Origin: Leptospirillum sp.
GTDB lineage: Bacteria > Nitrospirota > Leptospirillia > Leptospirillales > Leptospirillaceae
Direction: 5' to 3'
Length of the DNA: 50,036 bases
Assembly (NCBI GenBank): GCA_027315205.1
Contig: DAHUYM010000011.1
Span: forward strand, 1 to 50,036
The position numbers and the translations under genes were made by a program. Every line of letters starts with the position of its first letter. The first letter of the stretch is position 1. The notes under the pieces are model-generated. The model saw nothing but the letters and a program-made list of their open reading frames with translations, did not search any database and had not been told where the DNA came from. This document shows, piece after piece, positions 9,792 through 19,294 of the stretch.

Positions 9792-10049
9792 ATGAACATT
9801 ACGACATTGTCCAGCCGAGAGTTCAATCAGGACACCAGCGGAGCCAAGAAGGCCGCAAAAGAGGGTCCGGTATTCATCACGGATCGTGGTCGGCCTGCGC
9901 ACGTTCTTTTGAGCATAGAGGACTACCAGAAGCTGACGGGTGGTCTCATCAGCATCGTCGACATGCTGGCGATGCCCGGGGTCGAAGATATCGAGTTCGA
10001 GCCTCCGCGTCTGCGCGATAAATCCCACCGGCCGGCAGACATGTCCTGA
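9792..10049 (+). CDS. Phd/YefM-type antitoxin
   Basis: An 85-residue antitoxin with the family pattern SSREFNQDTSGAKKAA, then VFITDRGRPAHVLLSIEDYQKL, and an acidic/aromatic C-terminal tail (VEDIEFEPPRL) typical of toxin-binding segments. It should neutralise the PIN toxin encoded next and repress the shared promoter. AGGAGGAGG lies immediately upstream of the ATG. The stop TGA shares one base with the toxin ATG (TGATG). It is a different subtype from the antitoxin at 1.1-1.4 kb, so the two modules are not simple duplicates. Confidence 0.9.
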   Translation: MNITTLSSREFNQDTSGAKKAAKEGPVFITDRGRPAHVLLSIEDYQKLTGGLISIVDMLAMPGVEDIEFEPPRLRDKSHRPADMS

Positions 10050-10468
10050 TGTACGTGCTCGATACCAATGTCGTTTCCGAGTTACGGAAGGCGAAAGTCG
10101 GCAAGGCCGACAAGAATGTGACGGCATGGGCGGCCAGCGTTATTCCGTCCGGGTTGTTCCTGTCTGCCGTCACTATTCTGGAGCTTGAAATCGGGATTCT
10201 CCTGATCGAACGACGAGACCCCAAGAACGGTCTAATTCTTCGGACCTGGTTGGACGGACATGTTCTTAAGGCGTTTCGAGGGCGCATTTTGCCGTTCGAT
10301 ACTGCGGTTGCCCAGCAATGCGCGAAGCTGCATGTTCCGGACCCGCGATCCGATAGGGATGCCTTGATTGCCGCAACGGCATTGGTACATGGCATGATCG
10401 TCGTTACGAGAAACGTGGCCGACTTCGAGCCGACGGGTGTTCAAACATTCAACCCCTGGAAAGATTGA
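10049..10468 (+). CDS. vapC: VapC/FitB-like PIN-domain ribonuclease toxin
   Basis: A 139-residue PIN domain with D5 in VLDTNVVSE, E45 in ILELEIG, D104 in SDRDALIAA and the TRNVADF block near the end, so the metal site is intact. The VLDTNVVSELRK start and the FNPW ending are typical of the FitB/VapC subgroup. It starts on the antitoxin stop codon. As a toxin it would cleave structured RNA, often tRNA. The following HAD gene starts about at its stop codon and may be read on the same transcript. Confidence 0.92.
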   Translation: MYVLDTNVVSELRKAKVGKADKNVTAWAASVIPSGLFLSAVTILELEIGILLIERRDPKNGLILRTWLDGHVLKAFRGRILPFDTAVAQQCAKLHVPDPRSDRDALIAATALVHGMIVVTRNVADFEPTGVQTFNPWKD

Positions 10469-12020: not shown

Positions 12021-12297
12021 TTGCCCGGAACTCCCTGGTCTTTTTGACGGAGCCCTTCCTCCCTGCGTTCGTTGACTTTGCTCCCTCCAGTTCTTATAAT
12101 CCCACTCATTTACTCAAAATTTCATTTTCTGGCCAACTTGTGTTCTCCCGCGGGGAAGCCCGACGAAGTGCCGCAGTTGTCCGGGCATGTTCGGAGGACG
12201 TAGGACTGCCGCTCTCATACCGGGTCTTAATTTCACGATCGACAGATAGCAAGTGCCCGCGCTTTCTACCAGACAAGCCGGGAAAACGGGAGGTTGC

Positions 12298-13374
12298 ATG
12301 AAATCAGTGTCTTTGAAGTCCAAGCACGGCGCTCAGGGTGCCAACGTCCGCCCATTCCTCCGGTCGTTTCTTTTGAGCCTGGGACTGGTTCTTGCCGTTA
12401 CGGGATTCACGGGTGCAGGGGACTTTCTTTCGATCGCCAGGGCAAGTGCCTCCCCGACGATCGAAGGCTGGAAGTTCAGGGATACCCTGGGAATCAGCAT
12501 CCCCTTGAATGGCCTCGCTTTCATCAGCCCCACGGAGGGCTGGGTCACGGGGGCTTCGGGGGTGATCCTTCACACCACGGATGCCGGGAAGCAATGGATG
12601 GCCCAAAACTCTGGAACCACTCACTGGCTCCAGTCCGTTTCGTTTGCGGACGCTTCCAATGGCTGGGTCGTCGGAAACGACGGCACGATCCTGGCGACGA
12701 AGGATGGCGGGGACACCTGGACCGCACAGGACTCCGGGAGCAAGTTCGATCTCTTTGTCGTGACGTTCCTGAACGCCAGTGAAGGATGGGCGGGAGGCTT
12801 TGCGGGAACGCTCCTTCATACGACGAACGGCGGCCGGACCTGGTCGAAGGTGTCGACGGATACCGCCCAGTGGATCATGAACATCTTTTTCCTGAAGTCC
12901 AATCCCAAGTTCGGCTGGGCCGTCGGCCAGGACGGTCTCGTCCTGGTGACGAAGGACGGCGGGGACACCTGGCAGAAGAAAAACAACTCCGTCGGGAAAG
13001 ATCTCTATGGTGTCTACTTCACCGATCAGAACCAGGGCTGGGCGGTAGGAACCCATGGTGTTATCCAGTACACCGCCAACGGGGGCGATTCCTGGATTAT
13101 CCAGAATGGTCTCGGACGCGGTCCGATGGGACGGGCGATCGAGGGTGACGAGCGCGAGCTGAACGATCTTCATGCGATCGTGTTCCTGGACAAGAAGACG
13201 GGCTATGCCGTCGGTGTGATGGGTGCCGTTCTCAAAACGGTCGATGCCGGAAACACATGGTCGATCGTCAAGGCCGGGACCGGTCTCGACCTGTATAACA
13301 TTGCTTTCCCCGGGCCCGACAGCGGCTGGATCGTGGGCGTCGGCGGAATGATCCTGTACAAGGGCAAGAGCTAA
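12298..13374 (+). CDS. YCF48/Hcf136-like seven-bladed beta-propeller protein, exported
   Basis: A 358-residue protein with a signal peptide (hydrophobic core FLLSLGLVLAVTGF, about residues 23-36) and seven repeats of the form GW-x-VG-x-x-G-x-IL-x-T-x-DGG-x-TW spaced about 40-45 residues apart, the BNR/YCF48 propeller pattern. In phototrophs YCF48 helps assemble photosystem II; homologs in non-phototrophs are periplasmic propellers of unknown role, perhaps assembly factors for envelope complexes. The ATG at 12298 is chosen because GGGAGG lies just before it. The gene stands alone and ends at a strong terminator. Confidence 0.88.
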   Translation: MKSVSLKSKHGAQGANVRPFLRSFLLSLGLVLAVTGFTGAGDFLSIARASASPTIEGWKFRDTLGISIPLNGLAFISPTEGWVTGASGVILHTTDAGKQWMAQNSGTTHWLQSVSFADASNGWVVGNDGTILATKDGGDTWTAQDSGSKFDLFVVTFLNASEGWAGGFAGTLLHTTNGGRTWSKVSTDTAQWIMNIFFLKSNPKFGWAVGQDGLVLVTKDGGDTWQKKNNSVGKDLYGVYFTDQNQGWAVGTHGVIQYTANGGDSWIIQNGLGRGPMGRAIEGDERELNDLHAIVFLDKKTGYAVGVMGAVLKTVDAGNTWSIVKAGTGLDLYNIAFPGPDSGWIVGVGGMILYKGKS

Positions 13375-13480: not shown

Positions 13481-14107
13481 ATGATCAACTTTATTCCATT
13501 GACCTTTTTCGGCCTGATCGCGATTGTCGGGATCTCCTTTTTTCTGCATGGTTTCGCGAACCGCCAGAAAATTTTCGCCTTCTTCCGGGAGTTGGCCGGA
13601 ACTCTGGACGGAGAAGCGGGTAGGGACAATGTGGCCTCTTACCCTTGGCTCAAAGGGCACATTGACGGCCGCGATGTCCGGATCTTCTTCCATACCTCCG
13701 AAAACCACACGGTGAGCGTCTTGAATCTGGTGACCCAGATGAAAACAACGACGCCACTGCGTTTCGTGTTGCTCCAGAAGGACGGATTCCGGAAGCCCAA
13801 GCCCGACCAGCTCCAGAAGCTCGAAGATGAAGTGGGGCCGATCGTGCCTTTCGAGGGTTTGCCCTTCGACGTGCGTTCGCCGGAAGGCGCGGGGATCCAG
13901 CCGGTTCTTTCGGACCCGGATTTCCGCCAGGCGCTGAAGGAGCTCGAAGGGTACAACCAGGTTCTCTTCTGGGATGGCCAGGTCATCGTTTCCCGGCAGT
14001 TTGCCGGCGTCCCGGAGACGGAGCCCAAGCGGGTTCTCGCACTCCTGGACACCCTCTCCCGGTTGATCCGTCCCGCGGAGGCGGAGGCGACGGTTGGAGC
14101 CCGATAG
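13481..14107 (+). CDS. Unknown protein with one N-terminal membrane anchor
   Basis: A 208-residue protein with one membrane helix at residues 2-22 (INFIPLTFFGLIAIVGISFF), then a mixed alpha/beta soluble part. No catalytic motif was recognised. AGGA lies six bases before the ATG. Its last 14 bases overlap the start of the DsrE-like gene, whose ribosome site is inside it, so it probably heads the operon with the three DsrE/F/H-like genes and possibly the ABC permeases. Function unknown. Confidence 0.75.
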   Translation: MINFIPLTFFGLIAIVGISFFLHGFANRQKIFAFFRELAGTLDGEAGRDNVASYPWLKGHIDGRDVRIFFHTSENHTVSVLNLVTQMKTTTPLRFVLLQKDGFRKPKPDQLQKLEDEVGPIVPFEGLPFDVRSPEGAGIQPVLSDPDFRQALKELEGYNQVLFWDGQVIVSRQFAGVPETEPKRVLALLDTLSRLIRPAEAEATVGAR

Positions 14108-14444
14108 GAAACACGTCCTCGTCCTTCTCCTGAAGAGCCCCGAATGGACCCTCTTCCATTCGGTCGTCCAGCTTTCGGTCGCGATGATCGACGAAGGAGC
14201 CCGTCTTACGCTCTTCATCATGGACGATGCCGTTCTCGGACTCTATCCCCGTTCCCTTCGCGAACCGGACAGTTTTCCCCTCCATCCGATCCTCAAGAAA
14301 GGCGGGACGATTCTCGTCTGCCAGTCGACCTCGGAAATGCGGGGAGTCACCGCGGACCGGCTACCGACCGGAGCCCGATTCGAAACGCAGGTTCAACTGG
14401 GCCGCCAGGCAGCCGAAGCGGACCTTTTTCTCCCTTTCGTCTAG
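14094..14444 (+). CDS. DsrE/TusD-like sulfur relay protein
   Basis: A 116-residue alpha/beta protein of the DsrE fold: strand HVLVLLLKS, helix, strand RLTLFIMDDAV, and the segment ILVCQSTSEMRGV with C76 at the position of the sulfur-carrying cysteine of DsrE/TusD (usually 78). DsrE-type proteins pass persulfide sulfur between partners. The start is TTG 14094, backed by GGAGGC five bases upstream within the preceding gene. Two further DsrE-superfamily genes follow, giving an E-F-H-like order. Confidence 0.75.
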   Translation: MEPDRKHVLVLLLKSPEWTLFHSVVQLSVAMIDEGARLTLFIMDDAVLGLYPRSLREPDSFPLHPILKKGGTILVCQSTSEMRGVTADRLPTGARFETQVQLGRQAAEADLFLPFV

Positions 14445-14455
14445 AGGGAACGTCG

Positions 14456-14839
14456 ATGGGTCTCCCGAAACGCATCCTTTTTCTTTTGGAGGACTCCCCG
14501 TCCTCCCACATCCGTTTCTTCGAGGGGATGCGGATGGCATTAGGGTTCTCCGTGTCTCACCCGGGCATGGAAATGGTCCTGATGGGACCCTCCGTGCGTG
14601 TGTTCGGTCCTGTCCGGCCGGGAGAAATCGGCCTTCCGCCGGAACTCCTGGAGTTTTTCCCCTTGTTCGACGATCTCGATATCCGGATTTTCGCGGACAG
14701 GGAATCCCTTTCGCGATATTCGCCGTCCCATGCGCCCCCGCCTTCCATCCACTCCATTGAACGAAGCGAGATACTCGAAAAGATCCGGTCCGCCGACATC
14801 CTGATCCCGTTCGGGCCGGGAGGCAGGTCCACATGGTGA
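14456..14839 (+). CDS. DsrF/TusC-like protein
   Basis: A 127-residue protein beginning MGLPKRILFLLEDSPSSHI, with a first strand, a long helix (FFEGMRMALGFSV), then strand EMVLMGPSVRVF, the DsrE/DsrF core pattern, and a final strand ADILIPFG. GAGGGA precedes the ATG at 14456. No cysteine occurs in the usual position, so any role would be structural within a heterohexamer. It follows the DsrE-like gene by 11 bp and overlaps the next gene. Similarity to DsrF is by pattern and position only. Confidence 0.62.
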   Translation: MGLPKRILFLLEDSPSSHIRFFEGMRMALGFSVSHPGMEMVLMGPSVRVFGPVRPGEIGLPPELLEFFPLFDDLDIRIFADRESLSRYSPSHAPPPSIHSIERSEILEKIRSADILIPFGPGGRSTW

Positions 14840-15108
14840 CCGATACGCTCTTCCTCATCGCTACCTGCCCCCCCCCGGACTGGATGAGTCAGGCGATCGA
14901 AGAAGCCCGGAGCACTCCCGGAGGCGGATCTGTCGCTGTCCTGCTCATGGGGGAAGGCGTCTGCAACGCGAAAGACCAGTTTCCCGATGCCCTCGTGCTG
15001 GCCCGCGATGCCGTCGGCAGGGGAGTTTCTCCCGGGGACAGGGCCTTGACCGATCATGAAGCGGCCCGGTGGATACTGAATTCGCGCCGGGTCATCACCT
15101 CTACCTGA
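14833..15108 (+). CDS. DsrH/TusB-like protein
   Basis: A 91-residue protein overlapping the preceding gene by 7 bp (ATGGTGA). It shows the TusB/DsrH layout: N-terminal strand DTLFLIATC, helix, strand VAVLLMGEGV, then LVLARDAVGRGVSP matching the usual ALNEDLIARGL, and a final helix-strand pair. C12 sits near the N-terminus rather than at the Cys20 position of A. vinosum DsrH. Together with the two genes before it, this makes a DsrEFH/TusDCB-like set for sulfur transfer. Confidence 0.62.
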   Translation: MVTDTLFLIATCPPPDWMSQAIEEARSTPGGGSVAVLLMGEGVCNAKDQFPDALVLARDAVGRGVSPGDRALTDHEAARWILNSRRVITST

Positions 15109-15118
15109 CCGGACCCGG

Positions 15119-15943
15119 ATGACCGCGGACCCGTCCTCTCGAAACCTCCGGCGGTCTTTGGGAATCGTCGCCGTCGGTTTGCTGGGAATCCTCATCATCC
15201 TGTCCGTCCTGCCGGAAAGCGTGACGGGGCTGGATCCTGTCCGTCAGGATACACGTCTCGTCCTGGCACCTCCGGGAACGGAAAACCACCTTCTGGGATG
15301 CGATTTCCTGGGTCGCGACAATCTGGCCCGCCTCATCAAGGGCTCGGGCGTCTCTCTTGCGATCGGCCTGTCCGTCGGCATTCTTTCGACCCTCTTCGGA
15401 ATGCTCTGGGGTCTTTTTTCCGGGTATGCAGGGGGCTTCTCTGACCTGTTCCTCATGCGGGTGCTCGAGGTCTGGTATGCGTTGCCGGAACTCCTGATCG
15501 CGACGATCCTGATGCTCGTCCTCGGCCATGGGATCGTGGCTGTGATCGTGGCCTTGAGCATCGGCGGTTGGATGGGGGTGGCGCGCGTCGTCCGGGCGGA
15601 AACCCTCAAGATACGCGAACAGGCTTACCTCGAAGCCGCCAGGTCCATCGGTGTTCCCCCGGCCCGCCTTCTGTCCCGGCATTTTCTTCCGAACCTGGTC
15701 CCGGTTCTCCTGGTCCTTCTTCTTTTCCGCATACCGGGAGGTATCCTTGGCGAATCGACGCTCAGTTTCCTCGGCCTTGGACTCTCGCCTCCCGCATCCA
15801 GCTGGGGAACGCTGGTCAACGAAGGATGGAAAGCCCTTCCCCTGGCCCCATGGGTTCTCGCGTTCCCGGCCCTGATGATCGTCCTGGCCCTTCTGGCGTT
15901 CCAGTGGACAGCGGAGCGCGCCGGCGAAAGGTGGTCCCGGTGA
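15119..15943 (+). CDS. ABC transporter permease, dipeptide/nickel type (DppC-like)
   Basis: A 274-residue inner-membrane permease with about six helices. An N-terminal helix is followed by the characteristic HLLGCDFLGRDNLARLIKG block of DppC/OppC. The EAA loop EAARSIGVPPARLLSRHFLPN contacts the ATPase, and the ending ESTLSFLGLGLSPPASSWG is diagnostic for this subfamily. The next gene encodes the DppB-like partner and overlaps it by GTGA. No substrate-binding protein or ATPase gene is nearby, so the transported compound (peptide, nickel or other) is unknown. Confidence 0.92.
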   Translation: MTADPSSRNLRRSLGIVAVGLLGILIILSVLPESVTGLDPVRQDTRLVLAPPGTENHLLGCDFLGRDNLARLIKGSGVSLAIGLSVGILSTLFGMLWGLFSGYAGGFSDLFLMRVLEVWYALPELLIATILMLVLGHGIVAVIVALSIGGWMGVARVVRAETLKIREQAYLEAARSIGVPPARLLSRHFLPNLVPVLLVLLLFRIPGGILGESTLSFLGLGLSPPASSWGTLVNEGWKALPLAPWVLAFPALMIVLALLAFQWTAERAGERWSR

Positions 15944-16851
15944 AGCGTCTCGCGTACCGGTTGGTCGGTTCGGTCATCCTCGTCTGGTCGGTCTTCACCC
16001 TGACCTTCTTCCTCTCCCGTCTCGCCCCTGGGAACCCATTCCAGGGGGATCGGAAACTGCCCCCCGAAATCATGCGTACGCTCCTGTCCTATTATCACCT
16101 CGACCGGCCATTGCCCGTGCAGTATTGGGAAGCGCTGAAAAAGACGGCCGAAGGGGACTGGGGGAGTTCATTCAAGAATCCGGGGGTCTCCGTTTCGGAT
16201 GTGATCGGGAAAGCGCTCCCCGTGTCGATAACCCTGGGGAGTGTCGCCTTTTTCGCGTCGTTAGTGATTGCCCTTTCGCTCGGGCTGTGGATCGCCCGTT
16301 CGAAAGAGCCGATGACATCGGTTCTCAGGAGCCTGACCTCTGTCTGGGTCGCGCTTCCCTCGTTCCTCCTGGCGTCCGTTCTCATCGAGTTCCTTGCGGT
16401 GAAGCTCCCCTTATTTCCTCCGGCCCTGTGGGAAGGATGGCGTTCGATCGTTCTTCCGGCGCTCGCGATGTCGATCGCCCCGGCCGGGTATCTGGCCAGG
16501 ATATTCGCGACATCCCTGAAAGACACCTTCCAGAGCCCGTTCTACCAGGCGGCGAGGGGACGGGGCATCTCGTCCTTCCGGCTCGTCGTCGCCCATGGTG
16601 TGGCTCCGTCGCTGAATGCCGTGGTCGCCATCCTCGGACCGCTCTCGGCTTCGTTTCTGACCGGTTCGTTCGTCGTGGAATCGATCTTCGCTATCCCGGG
16701 GATCGGACGGGTGTTCGTCCTGTCCGTCATGAACCGGGATTATCCCCTGATCATGGGGACGACGCTCGTCTATACGTTTCTTCTGGTGGGGATGACCCTG
16801 GTGGGAGATGTCTTGGGAGAGTGGCTCGACCCGAGGGTCCGTGCGATTTAG
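15940..16851 (+). CDS. ABC transporter permease, dipeptide/nickel type (DppB-like)
   Basis: A 303-residue permease with the DppB signature at its N-terminus (first helix, then LSRLAPGNPF), a periplasmic loop with YHLDRPLPVQYW, the EAA loop QAARGRGISSFRLVVAHGV, and the ending VESIFAIPGIGRVFVLSVMNRDYPLI-like block. The GTG start overlaps the DppC stop as GTGA and has AAAGGTGG upstream. The C-before-B order is the reverse of the usual dppBC order. It presumably pairs with the DppC-like protein; ATPases must be encoded elsewhere. Confidence 0.92.
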   Translation: MKRLAYRLVGSVILVWSVFTLTFFLSRLAPGNPFQGDRKLPPEIMRTLLSYYHLDRPLPVQYWEALKKTAEGDWGSSFKNPGVSVSDVIGKALPVSITLGSVAFFASLVIALSLGLWIARSKEPMTSVLRSLTSVWVALPSFLLASVLIEFLAVKLPLFPPALWEGWRSIVLPALAMSIAPAGYLARIFATSLKDTFQSPFYQAARGRGISSFRLVVAHGVAPSLNAVVAILGPLSASFLTGSFVVESIFAIPGIGRVFVLSVMNRDYPLIMGTTLVYTFLLVGMTLVGDVLGEWLDPRVRAI

Positions 16852-17907: not shown

Positions 17908-18094
17908 AACATCAACTCCTCATGCTGGAAAACCGGGATGCAGCCCCGCACTCGTGATAATTTAGGGCAATCTGAATGAGTGTGGTTTTTTGATTATGGA
18001 ACAGTTTCACCGAGTTGAAAAGAGTTACAACCCGAGTTGGAATCCGTTTTTTTATATCGATCAAAATTAATGATATTTATTGAAGGGAGAATCG

Positions 18095-19294
18095 GTGCTG
18101 TATAAAGAGGAAGGTCCAGGGGATGTTTCCCCGGAAACGAAGGCGATCCACGTCCGACATGTATCCGACCCCGCCCGCGCGTTGACTCCGCCCCTCTACC
18201 AGACATCGACATTCACATTCCCTGATATGGAAACGGCGGATCGTGTCCTCAAGGGAGAGGAAAAGGGGTTCGTCTATTCCCGTGGCGGAAACCCGACCGT
18301 GGCGCAGTTCGAATCGGCCCTCTCGGAGCTGGAAGGCGGGGAGGCGTCACGGGCGTTCGCTTCGGGGATGGGAGCGATATCGGCGCTCCTGATCCACCTG
18401 GCGAAAGGAGGGCGTTCGGTCATCGTGCCGAAGTACCTCTACATCGGGACCCGGGCCTTCGTCCAGAAGTTCCTGATCCCCTGGGACATCCCGGTCCATT
18501 GGTTCGACCCGAGAGACCCGTCCTGGACGGACTCCATGCAGGGTCTCCTGGCCGGGAACGCCGGAGCGGTCTTCGTCGAAACCCCTTCCAACCCGACGTT
18601 GGACATCATCGACCTGTCCCTTCTGGCGCGGCTGTGCCGGGAAGCGAACGTTCCCCTCGTGGTCGACAACACCTTCGCAAGTCCCGTTCTCCAGAGACCC
18701 ATCGCCTTCGGGGCGTCCGTCGTGGTCCACAGCGCAACGAAATACCTGGGGGGTCATGGGGACCTCCTCGGAGGGGTCCTGACCGGCCCGGCGGAGATCG
18801 TGTCCAAGGTGGCTTCGGACGAAGGCAGCTTTCTCGGGGCGACGCTGTCGCCCTTCAATGCCTGGCTGATCCTCCGGGGAATCAAGACACTCCATATCCG
18901 TATGCAGGCGCATTGCGACAGGGCCGAGGAAATCGCCTCCTTTCTTGCCGGCCATCCGAAGGTCTGTTCGGTCCGTTACCCGGGCCTCGCCGGTCACCCG
19001 GGCCACGATACGGCCCGCAGGCAAATGCGGCGTTTCGGGGGTATGCTCTCTTTCGAGCTCGCGTCTTCCGTCGAGGCCCGGCGCGTGGCAAACCGGCTCG
19101 AGATCTTCCAGATCGGCGTCAGTCTGGGGGATCCGGGAAGCCTGATCGAGCATCCGTGGTCGATGAGCCACCGCCTTTTGTCGGAAGCGGACCGGCTGTC
19201 ATCCGGGGTTACGCCGGGTCTCCTCCGGATGTCCGTGGGGCTGGAAGGCCTGACGGACCTCGTCAGGGATCTCGACAGGGCCCTTTCCTCCTGA
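18095..19294 (+). CDS. Trans-sulfuration PLP enzyme (cystathionine gamma-synthase / gamma-lyase / methionine gamma-lyase family)
   Basis: A 399-residue Cys/Met-metabolism PLP enzyme. PLP-phosphate contacts YSR (about 61-63) and the SGMGA loop, D191 in VVDNTFASP and the Schiff-base lysine K216 in HSATKYLGGHGD are all present, as is the C-terminal SLGDPGSLIEHP block. The position of the MGL active cysteine reads LYIGTRAF, without Cys, so methionine gamma-lyase activity is less likely than synthase or gamma-lyase activity. GTG 18095 is selected because AAGGGAG precedes it; an in-frame TTG at 18080 has no such site. The exact reaction cannot be settled from sequence alone. Confidence 0.9.
   Translation: MLYKEEGPGDVSPETKAIHVRHVSDPARALTPPLYQTSTFTFPDMETADRVLKGEEKGFVYSRGGNPTVAQFESALSELEGGEASRAFASGMGAISALLIHLAKGGRSVIVPKYLYIGTRAFVQKFLIPWDIPVHWFDPRDPSWTDSMQGLLAGNAGAVFVETPSNPTLDIIDLSLLARLCREANVPLVVDNTFASPVLQRPIAFGASVVVHSATKYLGGHGDLLGGVLTGPAEIVSKVASDEGSFLGATLSPFNAWLILRGIKTLHIRMQAHCDRAEEIASFLAGHPKVCSVRYPGLAGHPGHDTARRQMRRFGGMLSFELASSVEARRVANRLEIFQIGVSLGDPGSLIEHPWSMSHRLLSEADRLSSGVTPGLLRMSVGLEGLTDLVRDLDRALSS

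What the first reader, a model, noticed from the sequence alone, without database searches (positions are those of the whole stretch)
14094..16851. DsrEFH/TusDCB-like trio directly followed by dipeptide-type ABC permeases
Three short DsrE-superfamily-like genes in E-F-H order (first with the carrier Cys76) run into DppC- and DppB-like permeases with 10 bp between the two groups and GTGA coupling between permeases. No binding protein or ATPase is present. Sulfur-relay proteins coupled to import of a sulfur compound or peptide is a testable idea.
Basis: partly seen in the sequence, partly recalled or inferred. Interest (0 to 1): 0.5.

Follow-up and report, generated by a model that had tools for sequence, protein, structure and literature searches.

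The report
Sulfur-carrier trio joined to peptide permease
In bacteria related to the iron-oxidiser Leptospirillum, three genes for a sulfur-carrying protein complex sit in one tight gene block with the two membrane halves of a peptide importer whose other parts lie elsewhere in the genome; the pieces are known kinds, the pairing appears new, and whether the two halves work together is untested.

Summary
Window 14094-15108 encodes a DsrE-DsrF-DsrH trio, shown by profiles and predicted folds, with the carrier Cys76 kept. It runs into OppC- and OppB-type permeases at 15119-16851. The block g13481-E-F-H-oppC-oppB is intact in all 18 family genomes where the DsrE gene was found (of 20 searched). 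D3 and PermC lie 17 bp or less apart in 17 of those 18.

The missing transporter parts exist elsewhere: an orphan OppA-type binding protein and a single OppDF ATPase pair. A single-contig relative genome is laid out likewise.

Outside this family, 17 of 17 loci with a related DsrE show no such permeases in the DNA held. Eight carry TusA- and DsrE2-like genes, two a YeeE/YedE-family transporter. Published DsrEFH type II genes sit with tusA and yeeE/yedE. YeeE/YedE was found in none of 21 family genomes, and DsrC/TusE not in the window's own.

So an ABC peptide-type permease stands where YeeE/YedE often stands. Shared function, substrate and acceptor are unproven; some flanking genes are syntenic too.

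The parts
12253..13374 (+). Ycf48-like beta-propeller gene with an N-terminal hydrophobic stretch; upstream neighbour, 106 bp before g13481
   Evidence: Pfam PSII_BNR E 4.5e-36; next upstream hit in all 18 family loci; spacing
13481..14107 (+). g13481, 208-aa protein of unknown family with an N-terminal hydrophobic stretch; first gene of the tight block, overlaps D1 by 14 bp
   Evidence: no significant Pfam or NCBIfam hit; 50-70% identity to the window protein over the 15 relatives aligned; present in all 18 family loci
14094..14444 (+). D1, DsrE/TusD-like subunit with Cys76
   Evidence: VCQST motif kept in all 18 relatives
14456..14839 (+). D2, DsrF/TusC-like subunit
   Evidence: AlphaFold2 model pLDDT 86.9; best PDB match DsrF 2hy5_B E 1.8e-7, then YchN, DsrE-type proteins and TusC; family profile against outside DsrF/TusC profile 99.7% probability, E 1.2e-26
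14833..15108 (+). D3, DsrH/TusB-like subunit
   Evidence: model pLDDT 92.5; VIA-align Z 10.3 to TusB 2d1p_C and 9.8 to DsrH 2hy5_C, with YchN at 9.4 counted as tied; family profile against outside DsrH/TusB profile 94.5%, E 8e-8; plain Foldseek gave nothing at E <= 0.001
15119..15943 (+). PermC, OppC-type ABC permease
   Evidence: BPD_transp_1 E 7e-31; best NCBIfam Opp4C below its cut-off; best solved relative OppC 8z21_B E 2e-44; coupling loop EAARSIG...P
15940..16851 (+). PermB, OppB-type ABC permease, 4-bp overlap with PermC
   Evidence: BPD_transp_1 E 4e-25; best NCBIfam Opp3B below its cut-off; coupling loop AARGRG...P

Best explanation
The locus is one operon of the Leptospirillum family. 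It encodes a DsrEFH/TusDCB-type sulfurtransferase complex together with the two membrane subunits of an oligopeptide-type ABC importer. The importer is completed in trans by an orphan OppA-type binding protein and by the genome's only OppDF ATPase pair. Most likely the importer brings in a sulfur-bearing ligand (for example a cysteine- or thiol-containing peptide). Sulfane sulfur released from it in the cytoplasm would be carried on Cys76 of D1 and passed on, probably through a TusA-type carrier encoded elsewhere. Shown: subunit identities, gene order, spacing, scattered but widely kept partner genes. Inferred: co-transcription, assembly of the complex, pairing of these permeases with that OppA and OppDF. 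Speculative: a sulfur ligand and direct hand-over. My split is about 0.95 for trio identity, 0.75 for the scattered transporter, 0.4 for functional coupling through sulfur.
For: Trio identity. Linkage: D1 found in 18 of 20 family genomes besides the window's own; the two misses, G014 and G016, are about 70% complete and also lack the PermC orthologue; the block is intact in all 18. Nearest-start spacing D3-PermC is -4 to +17 bp in 17 of 18, with -4 overlaps in 8. Transporter completed in trans: 2 SBP_bac_5 proteins in the own genome, one of them orphan, whose best solved matches are OppA-type proteins, with MppA also high; exactly 2 oligo_HPY ATPase matches in 18 of 21 family genomes, 1 in G020, 0 in G001 and G007; OppA orthologue in 16 of 21 including own (55-61% identity in the other 15), plus a fragment in G004. 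Single-contig genome G003: orphan OppA beside what looks like an rRNA operon, OppDF beside a QueD-like gene, no permease read next to either (neighbours judged by eye). Importer precedent: EFH followed by Sulf_transp in L126 (E 4e-69) and L127 (E 1e-46, partial reading frame); published synteny of dsrEFH type II with tusA and yeeE/yedE (PMC13293266). YeeE/YedE not found in 21 of 21 family genomes.
Against: Flanking synteny is partly conserved too (Ycf48 gene upstream in 18 of 18; g16864m downstream in 17 of 18, the other contig ending first), so the conserved linkage is weaker evidence of shared function than 18 of 18 suggests. One relative (L067) has 209 bp between D3 and PermC. The genome's four TusA matches lie on other contigs, and no DsrC/TusE acceptor was found in it. 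The orphan OppA resembles general oligopeptide and murein-peptide binders, not a sulfur-specific protein. OppA orthologues were not found in G001, G005, G013 and G014, though these are 64-87% complete. The own genome has another EFH-like trio plus further DsrE/TusA genes, so sulfur trafficking need not depend on this locus.
Confidence: 0.4

Rival explanations
1. Shared operon, separate jobs. The trio does its own sulfur relay (tRNA thiolation or cofactor sulfur), the permeases import ordinary peptides, and the two are merely co-expressed.
For: Nearest flanking genes are also syntenic; the OppA-type binding protein is a general peptide binder by homology; 19 of 21 family genomes have both PermC and a paralogue, the paralogue lying near the other binding protein in the own genome and in G003, so the permeases look like ordinary Opp parts.
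Against: The tight block stays intact in all 18 loci while the genes beyond Ycf48 upstream are no longer matched in the largest genus (some contigs end early), with near-zero D3-PermC spacing in 17 of 18; trios elsewhere neighbour another sulfur importer (PMC13293266).
Confidence: 0.42
2. The trio senses imported thiols or redox state and regulates the permease, rather than carrying sulfur onward.
For: No TusA on the window contig and no DsrC/TusE found; trio and permease genes closely spaced.
Against: Carrier Cys and surrounding motif kept in all 18 relatives, as expected of a sulfur carrier; no regulatory domain matched.
Confidence: 0.1
3. The trio is part of a DSR-type sulfur oxidation pathway, as in sulfur oxidisers and cable bacteria.
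For: Related trios outside the family sit with TusA- and DsrE2-like genes (by eye), and 73.9% of genomes with DsrEFH type II have reductive dsrAB (PMC13293266, section 14).
Against: No DsrC found in the own genome; Leptospirillum is described as an iron oxidiser (PMC11033732, passage). dsrAB itself was not searched here.
Confidence: 0.04

Closest known systems
DsrEFH type II cluster (YTD cluster) of cable bacteria and other Desulfobacterota and Nitrospirota (PMC13293266)
   Same: Syntenic E-F-H order, conserved carrier Cys in DsrE, gene cluster next to a membrane importer
   Different: There the importer is YeeE/YedE and tusA is in the cluster; here the importer is an Opp-type ABC permease pair, tusA is elsewhere and YeeE/YedE was not found in 21 family genomes
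DsrEFH type I of Allochromatium vinosum
   Same: Three subunits of the same folds; best solved match of D2 is its DsrF
   Different: Type I passes sulfur to DsrC and has DsrH-Cys20 (PMC3397948, passages); no DsrC found here and no invariant Cys in D3
TusBCD of Escherichia coli K-12
   Same: D3 superposes on TusB, D2 on TusC; the TusD Cys falls in the invariant carrier column of the outside DsrE alignment
   Different: 17% identity over the joined trio; no TusE found
OppABCDF oligopeptide importer
   Same: OppC/OppB-type permeases, OppA-type binding protein and OppD/OppF-type ATPases all in the genome
   Different: Genes scattered over three places, and permease genes placed in a sulfurtransferase gene block
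YeeE/TsuA thiosulfate importers
   Same: Membrane importer encoded beside sulfur carrier genes
   Different: Unrelated transporter fold and energy source (recalled)

Membership tests
DsrE superfamily trio (DsrEFH/TusDCB) | Three adjacent genes in E-F-H order, of DsrE, DsrF and DsrH type | tested here: met
   the fold searches show the superfamily, while the subunit class of D3 also rests on position (tied rows)
DsrE superfamily trio (DsrEFH/TusDCB) | Carrier cysteine in the DsrE/TusD subunit | tested here: met
   Cys76 invariant in 12 of 12 aligned, including outside DsrE proteins; VCQST in all 18 relatives
DsrE superfamily trio (DsrEFH/TusDCB) | Alpha2-beta2-gamma2 hexamer | not testable with these tools
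   no complex prediction offered
DsrEFH type II | Synteny with tusA and yeeE/yedE | tested here: not met
   own TusA matches are on C5, C11 and C22, not on the window contig C2; YeeE/YedE profile found in 0 of 21 family genomes
DsrEFH type II | Bit score above 80 to the authors' three models | not testable with these tools
   models not held; threshold read in PMC13293266 section 10
DsrEFH type I | Conserved cysteine in DsrH (Cys20) | tested here: inconclusive
   no invariant Cys in the 29-row D3 alignment; the window's D3 has two Cys of its own, and A. vinosum DsrH was not aligned
DsrEFH type I or TusBCD relay | DsrC/TusE acceptor in the genome | tested here: not met
   0 matches at E <= 1 in the own genome; E. 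coli among the 5 of 14 controls that ring
Opp/Dpp ABC importer | Two BPD_transp_1 permeases with ATPase-coupling loop | tested here: met
   in the largest genus the PermB loop departs from the AAR form but keeps the glycine
Opp/Dpp ABC importer | Family 5 binding protein and paired oligo_HPY ATPases | tested here: met
   present in the genome but not in the operon

The most novel reading that the evidence does not exclude
In the Leptospirillum family an ATP-driven peptide-type importer has taken the place of YeeE/YedE as the dedicated sulfur supplier of a DsrEFH complex. A sulfur-bearing peptide or thiol conjugate would be pumped in by OppA-OppBC-OppDF and its sulfur handed to D1 Cys76, giving a relay fed by an organic sulfur source in an iron oxidiser.
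Probability: 0.25. Interest if true: 0.7.

Novelty: new variant of a known kind. Interest (0 to 1): 0.42.

Why it matters
It gives a concrete, testable link between peptide import and cytoplasmic sulfur trafficking in relatives of an iron oxidiser, and suggests that DsrEFH-type complexes do not always belong to sulfur-oxidising or sulfate-reducing pathways. It also supplies likely partners, an orphan OppA and a shared OppDF pair, for permeases that would otherwise look incomplete.

Tried and rejected
A fused two-domain ABC ATPase at C7 (616-aa frame) was first taken as the partner; its reading looked like an ABC-2 exporter ATPase (by eye) and PF08352 did not ring there, whereas C22 did. Plain Foldseek of D3 gave no match at E <= 0.001; the VIA-align second look and profile comparison carry that subunit instead. 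There TusB, DsrH and YchN differ by less than 1 Z and so are tied, and D3 also aligns to the DsrF/TusC profile (90.9%), so its class as DsrH rests partly on position. D3 seemed missing in L076/L112 by tblastn, but the frame is there. A regular expression for the permease coupling loop failed in most relatives; an alignment shows the loop. The promoter and terminator scan was near shuffle level (2 against a mean of 1.2; 6 against 7.3). A plasmid search with the permeases gave only short pieces in 3 records.

Paper searches: (29, 1, 1, 1, 5, 18, 5 and 20 papers; only 20 of the 29 were listed). I saw no report of this pairing in those listings, but most papers were seen only as title and start of abstract. 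Opened: PMC13293266 (outline with abstract, passages, sections 10, 12 and 14), PMC3397948, PMC12998232 and PMC11033732 (passages). Supplements were not read. PMC4378227, which holds several of the terms, was not opened.

Most family genomes are incomplete; 4 of 21 are at least 90% complete and at most 5% contaminated. Rows dropped: L113, L114 (my coordinates ran past a stop) and L123 (run of N) from the D2 alignment; L112, L113, L114, L123, L125 and L128 from the D3 alignment; A7 and A9 leave out likewise, A9 also L119; A8 leaves out L123 and L125; A1, A10 and A11 use only 12, 8 and 10 sequences; the tree uses 27 rows. TusA- and DsrE2-like neighbours in the outside loci were recognised by eye; only the L126 TusA-rhodanese protein was scanned.
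Full report
What is there. The window is contig C2 of a 2.0-Mb, 42-contig genome listed as 99.93% complete. It holds a same-strand block: g13481 (13481-14107), D1 (14094-14444), D2 (14456-14839), D3 (14833-15108), PermC (15119-15943), PermB (15940-16851). Neighbouring ends overlap or lie within 11 bp.

Which organism. Of the 17 matching family contigs with titles, 2 are called Leptospirillum sp. and 15 Nitrospirae bacterium. 'Leptospirillum family' is therefore an inference from these titles and the kinship columns.

Identity of the trio. Single-sequence searches are nearly blind. Relatives solve it. D1 shares Cys76 with DsrE proteins outside the family (12 of 12 rows), and a family-only D1 profile aligns to an outside DsrE/TusD profile at 99.7%. 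For D2 the family-only profile aligns to an outside DsrF/TusC profile at 99.7%, E 1.2e-26, and the AlphaFold2 model (pLDDT 86.9) finds DsrF, YchN and TusC. For D3 the profile match is weaker (94.5%, E 8e-8) and plain Foldseek found nothing at E <= 0.001. The second look superposes the D3 model (pLDDT 92.5) on TusB (Z 10.3, 78 residues, 2.0 A) and DsrH (Z 9.8, 80 residues, 2.1 A), with YchN at Z 9.4. So the DsrE fold is clear, and DsrH rather than another DsrE-type class is the best but not exclusive reading; position after D2 fits. In a 27-row FastTree tree of joined E, F and H alignments the family's trios form one clade (support 0.996) on a long branch.

Conservation of the linkage. D1 was found in 18 of the 20 family genomes besides the window's own. 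In all 18 the order g13481-D1-D2-D3-PermC-PermB holds on one strand. Choosing the in-frame start nearest to the upstream stop, which favours small gaps, D3-PermC spacing is -4 to +17 bp in 17 of 18 and 209 bp in L067. The two genomes without D1 (G014, G016; 70 and 69% complete) also lack the PermC orthologue, so they do not break the linkage. A caution: Ycf48 upstream is kept in 18 of 18 and g16864m downstream in 17 of 18, while the two genes beyond Ycf48 are not matched in the largest genus (some contigs end early). Conserved order alone is therefore modest evidence for shared function.

Outside the family. Of 34 genome-contig loci, 17 are family loci with the permeases; the other 17 show neither permeases nor g13481 in the DNA held, and 14 of those hold at least 2.5 kb beyond the start of the D1 match. 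By title these 17 are 11 Nitrospirae or Nitrospirota, 3 Methylomirabilota, 1 Deltaproteobacteria, 1 archaeon and 1 called only 'bacterium'. By eye, 14 of the 17 carry E-F-H in order, and 8 (L120-L124, L131-L133) have TusA- and DsrE2-like genes downstream (in L123 the F gene is cut by a run of N). In two Methylomirabilota loci the next gene matches Sulf_transp (YeeE/YedE family; L126 E 4e-69, L127 E 1e-46 on part of the frame), and L126 then has a TusA-rhodanese protein. This agrees with the published DsrEFH type II: 985 genomes hold it, and the bacterial genes are described as in synteny with tusA and yeeE/yedE (PMC13293266, section 14). That paper's main text has 0 occurrences of Leptospirillum.

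The rest of the transporter. The own genome has two family 5 binding proteins. One (C37) sits with a second permease pair. The other (C41) lies at a contig end, with no permease or ATPase gene read beside it on the side held, and is most like OppA-type proteins. Oligopeptide-type ATPases with the oligo_HPY tail occur exactly twice, as neighbours at C22 next to a QueD-like gene. Across 21 family genomes the ATPase tail count is 2 in 18, 1 in one and 0 in two. The OppA orthologue is found in 16 including own, as a fragment in G004, and not in four. Both PermC and a paralogue are found in 19 of 21; G016 has only the paralogue, G014 neither. In the single-contig genome G003 the orphan OppA gene, OppDF and the second permease pair lie far apart, and by eye no permease lies beside OppA or OppDF. 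Pairing of the window permeases with the orphan OppA is by elimination and by Opp-type best matches; sharing of OppDF by both permease pairs is likewise inferred.

Mechanism. The best reading is an operon that couples an OppABCDF-type importer to a DsrEFH-type sulfurtransferase. The sulfur step would use D1 Cys76, the counterpart of DsrE Cys78, which binds sulfur in vitro (PMC3397948, passages), and of Cys67 in type II (PMC13293266 abstract). The usual acceptor DsrC/TusE was not found in the own genome, whereas four TusA matches were, on other contigs, so TusA is the more likely partner. YeeE/YedE was not found in any of 21 family genomes. The ligand is unknown; a sulfur-bearing peptide is a guess. 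The chief rival, one operon with two unrelated jobs, is about as likely.

Verdict. The pieces are known kinds; the pairing is a new variant of which I saw no report in the paper listings.

Noticed in passing
L098 15110-16164 (own genome C22:78109-79163, - strand): A second, very divergent E-F-H-like trio with a TusA gene beside it; 21% identity to the window trio over the joined proteins. Only its first protein matches DsrE, below the cut-off; F and H are by eye and position.
   Followed up: partly
L094 5184-7063 (own genome C5): Four DsrE matches in a row, three over the Pfam cut-off and one weak, with a short TusA-like gene among them; function not worked out.
   Followed up: no
L098 3474-4138 (own genome C22): A weakly DsrE-like gene (130 aa, E 0.026) directly followed by a TusA gene.
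   Followed up: no
window 9792-10468: A short gene pair that by eye resembles an antitoxin followed by a PIN-domain toxin; not scanned.
   Followed up: no
window 13481-14107: g13481, present in all 18 family loci as first gene of the block, matches no family in Pfam or NCBIfam.
   Followed up: partly
L096 7666-11407 (own genome C37): The second Opp-type binding protein and permease pair has no oligo_HPY ATPase nearby either and sits near genes that look like ATP synthase (by eye).
   Followed up: partly
window 18080-19294: A Cys/Met-metabolism PLP enzyme lies a little downstream, and a match is found in 13 of the 18 family loci; any link to the sulfur trio is open.
   Followed up: no
L109 2843-3100 and relatives: D3 of the largest genus carries a cysteine (FSQC or FSRC) that the window's D3 lacks at that place.
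   Followed up: no
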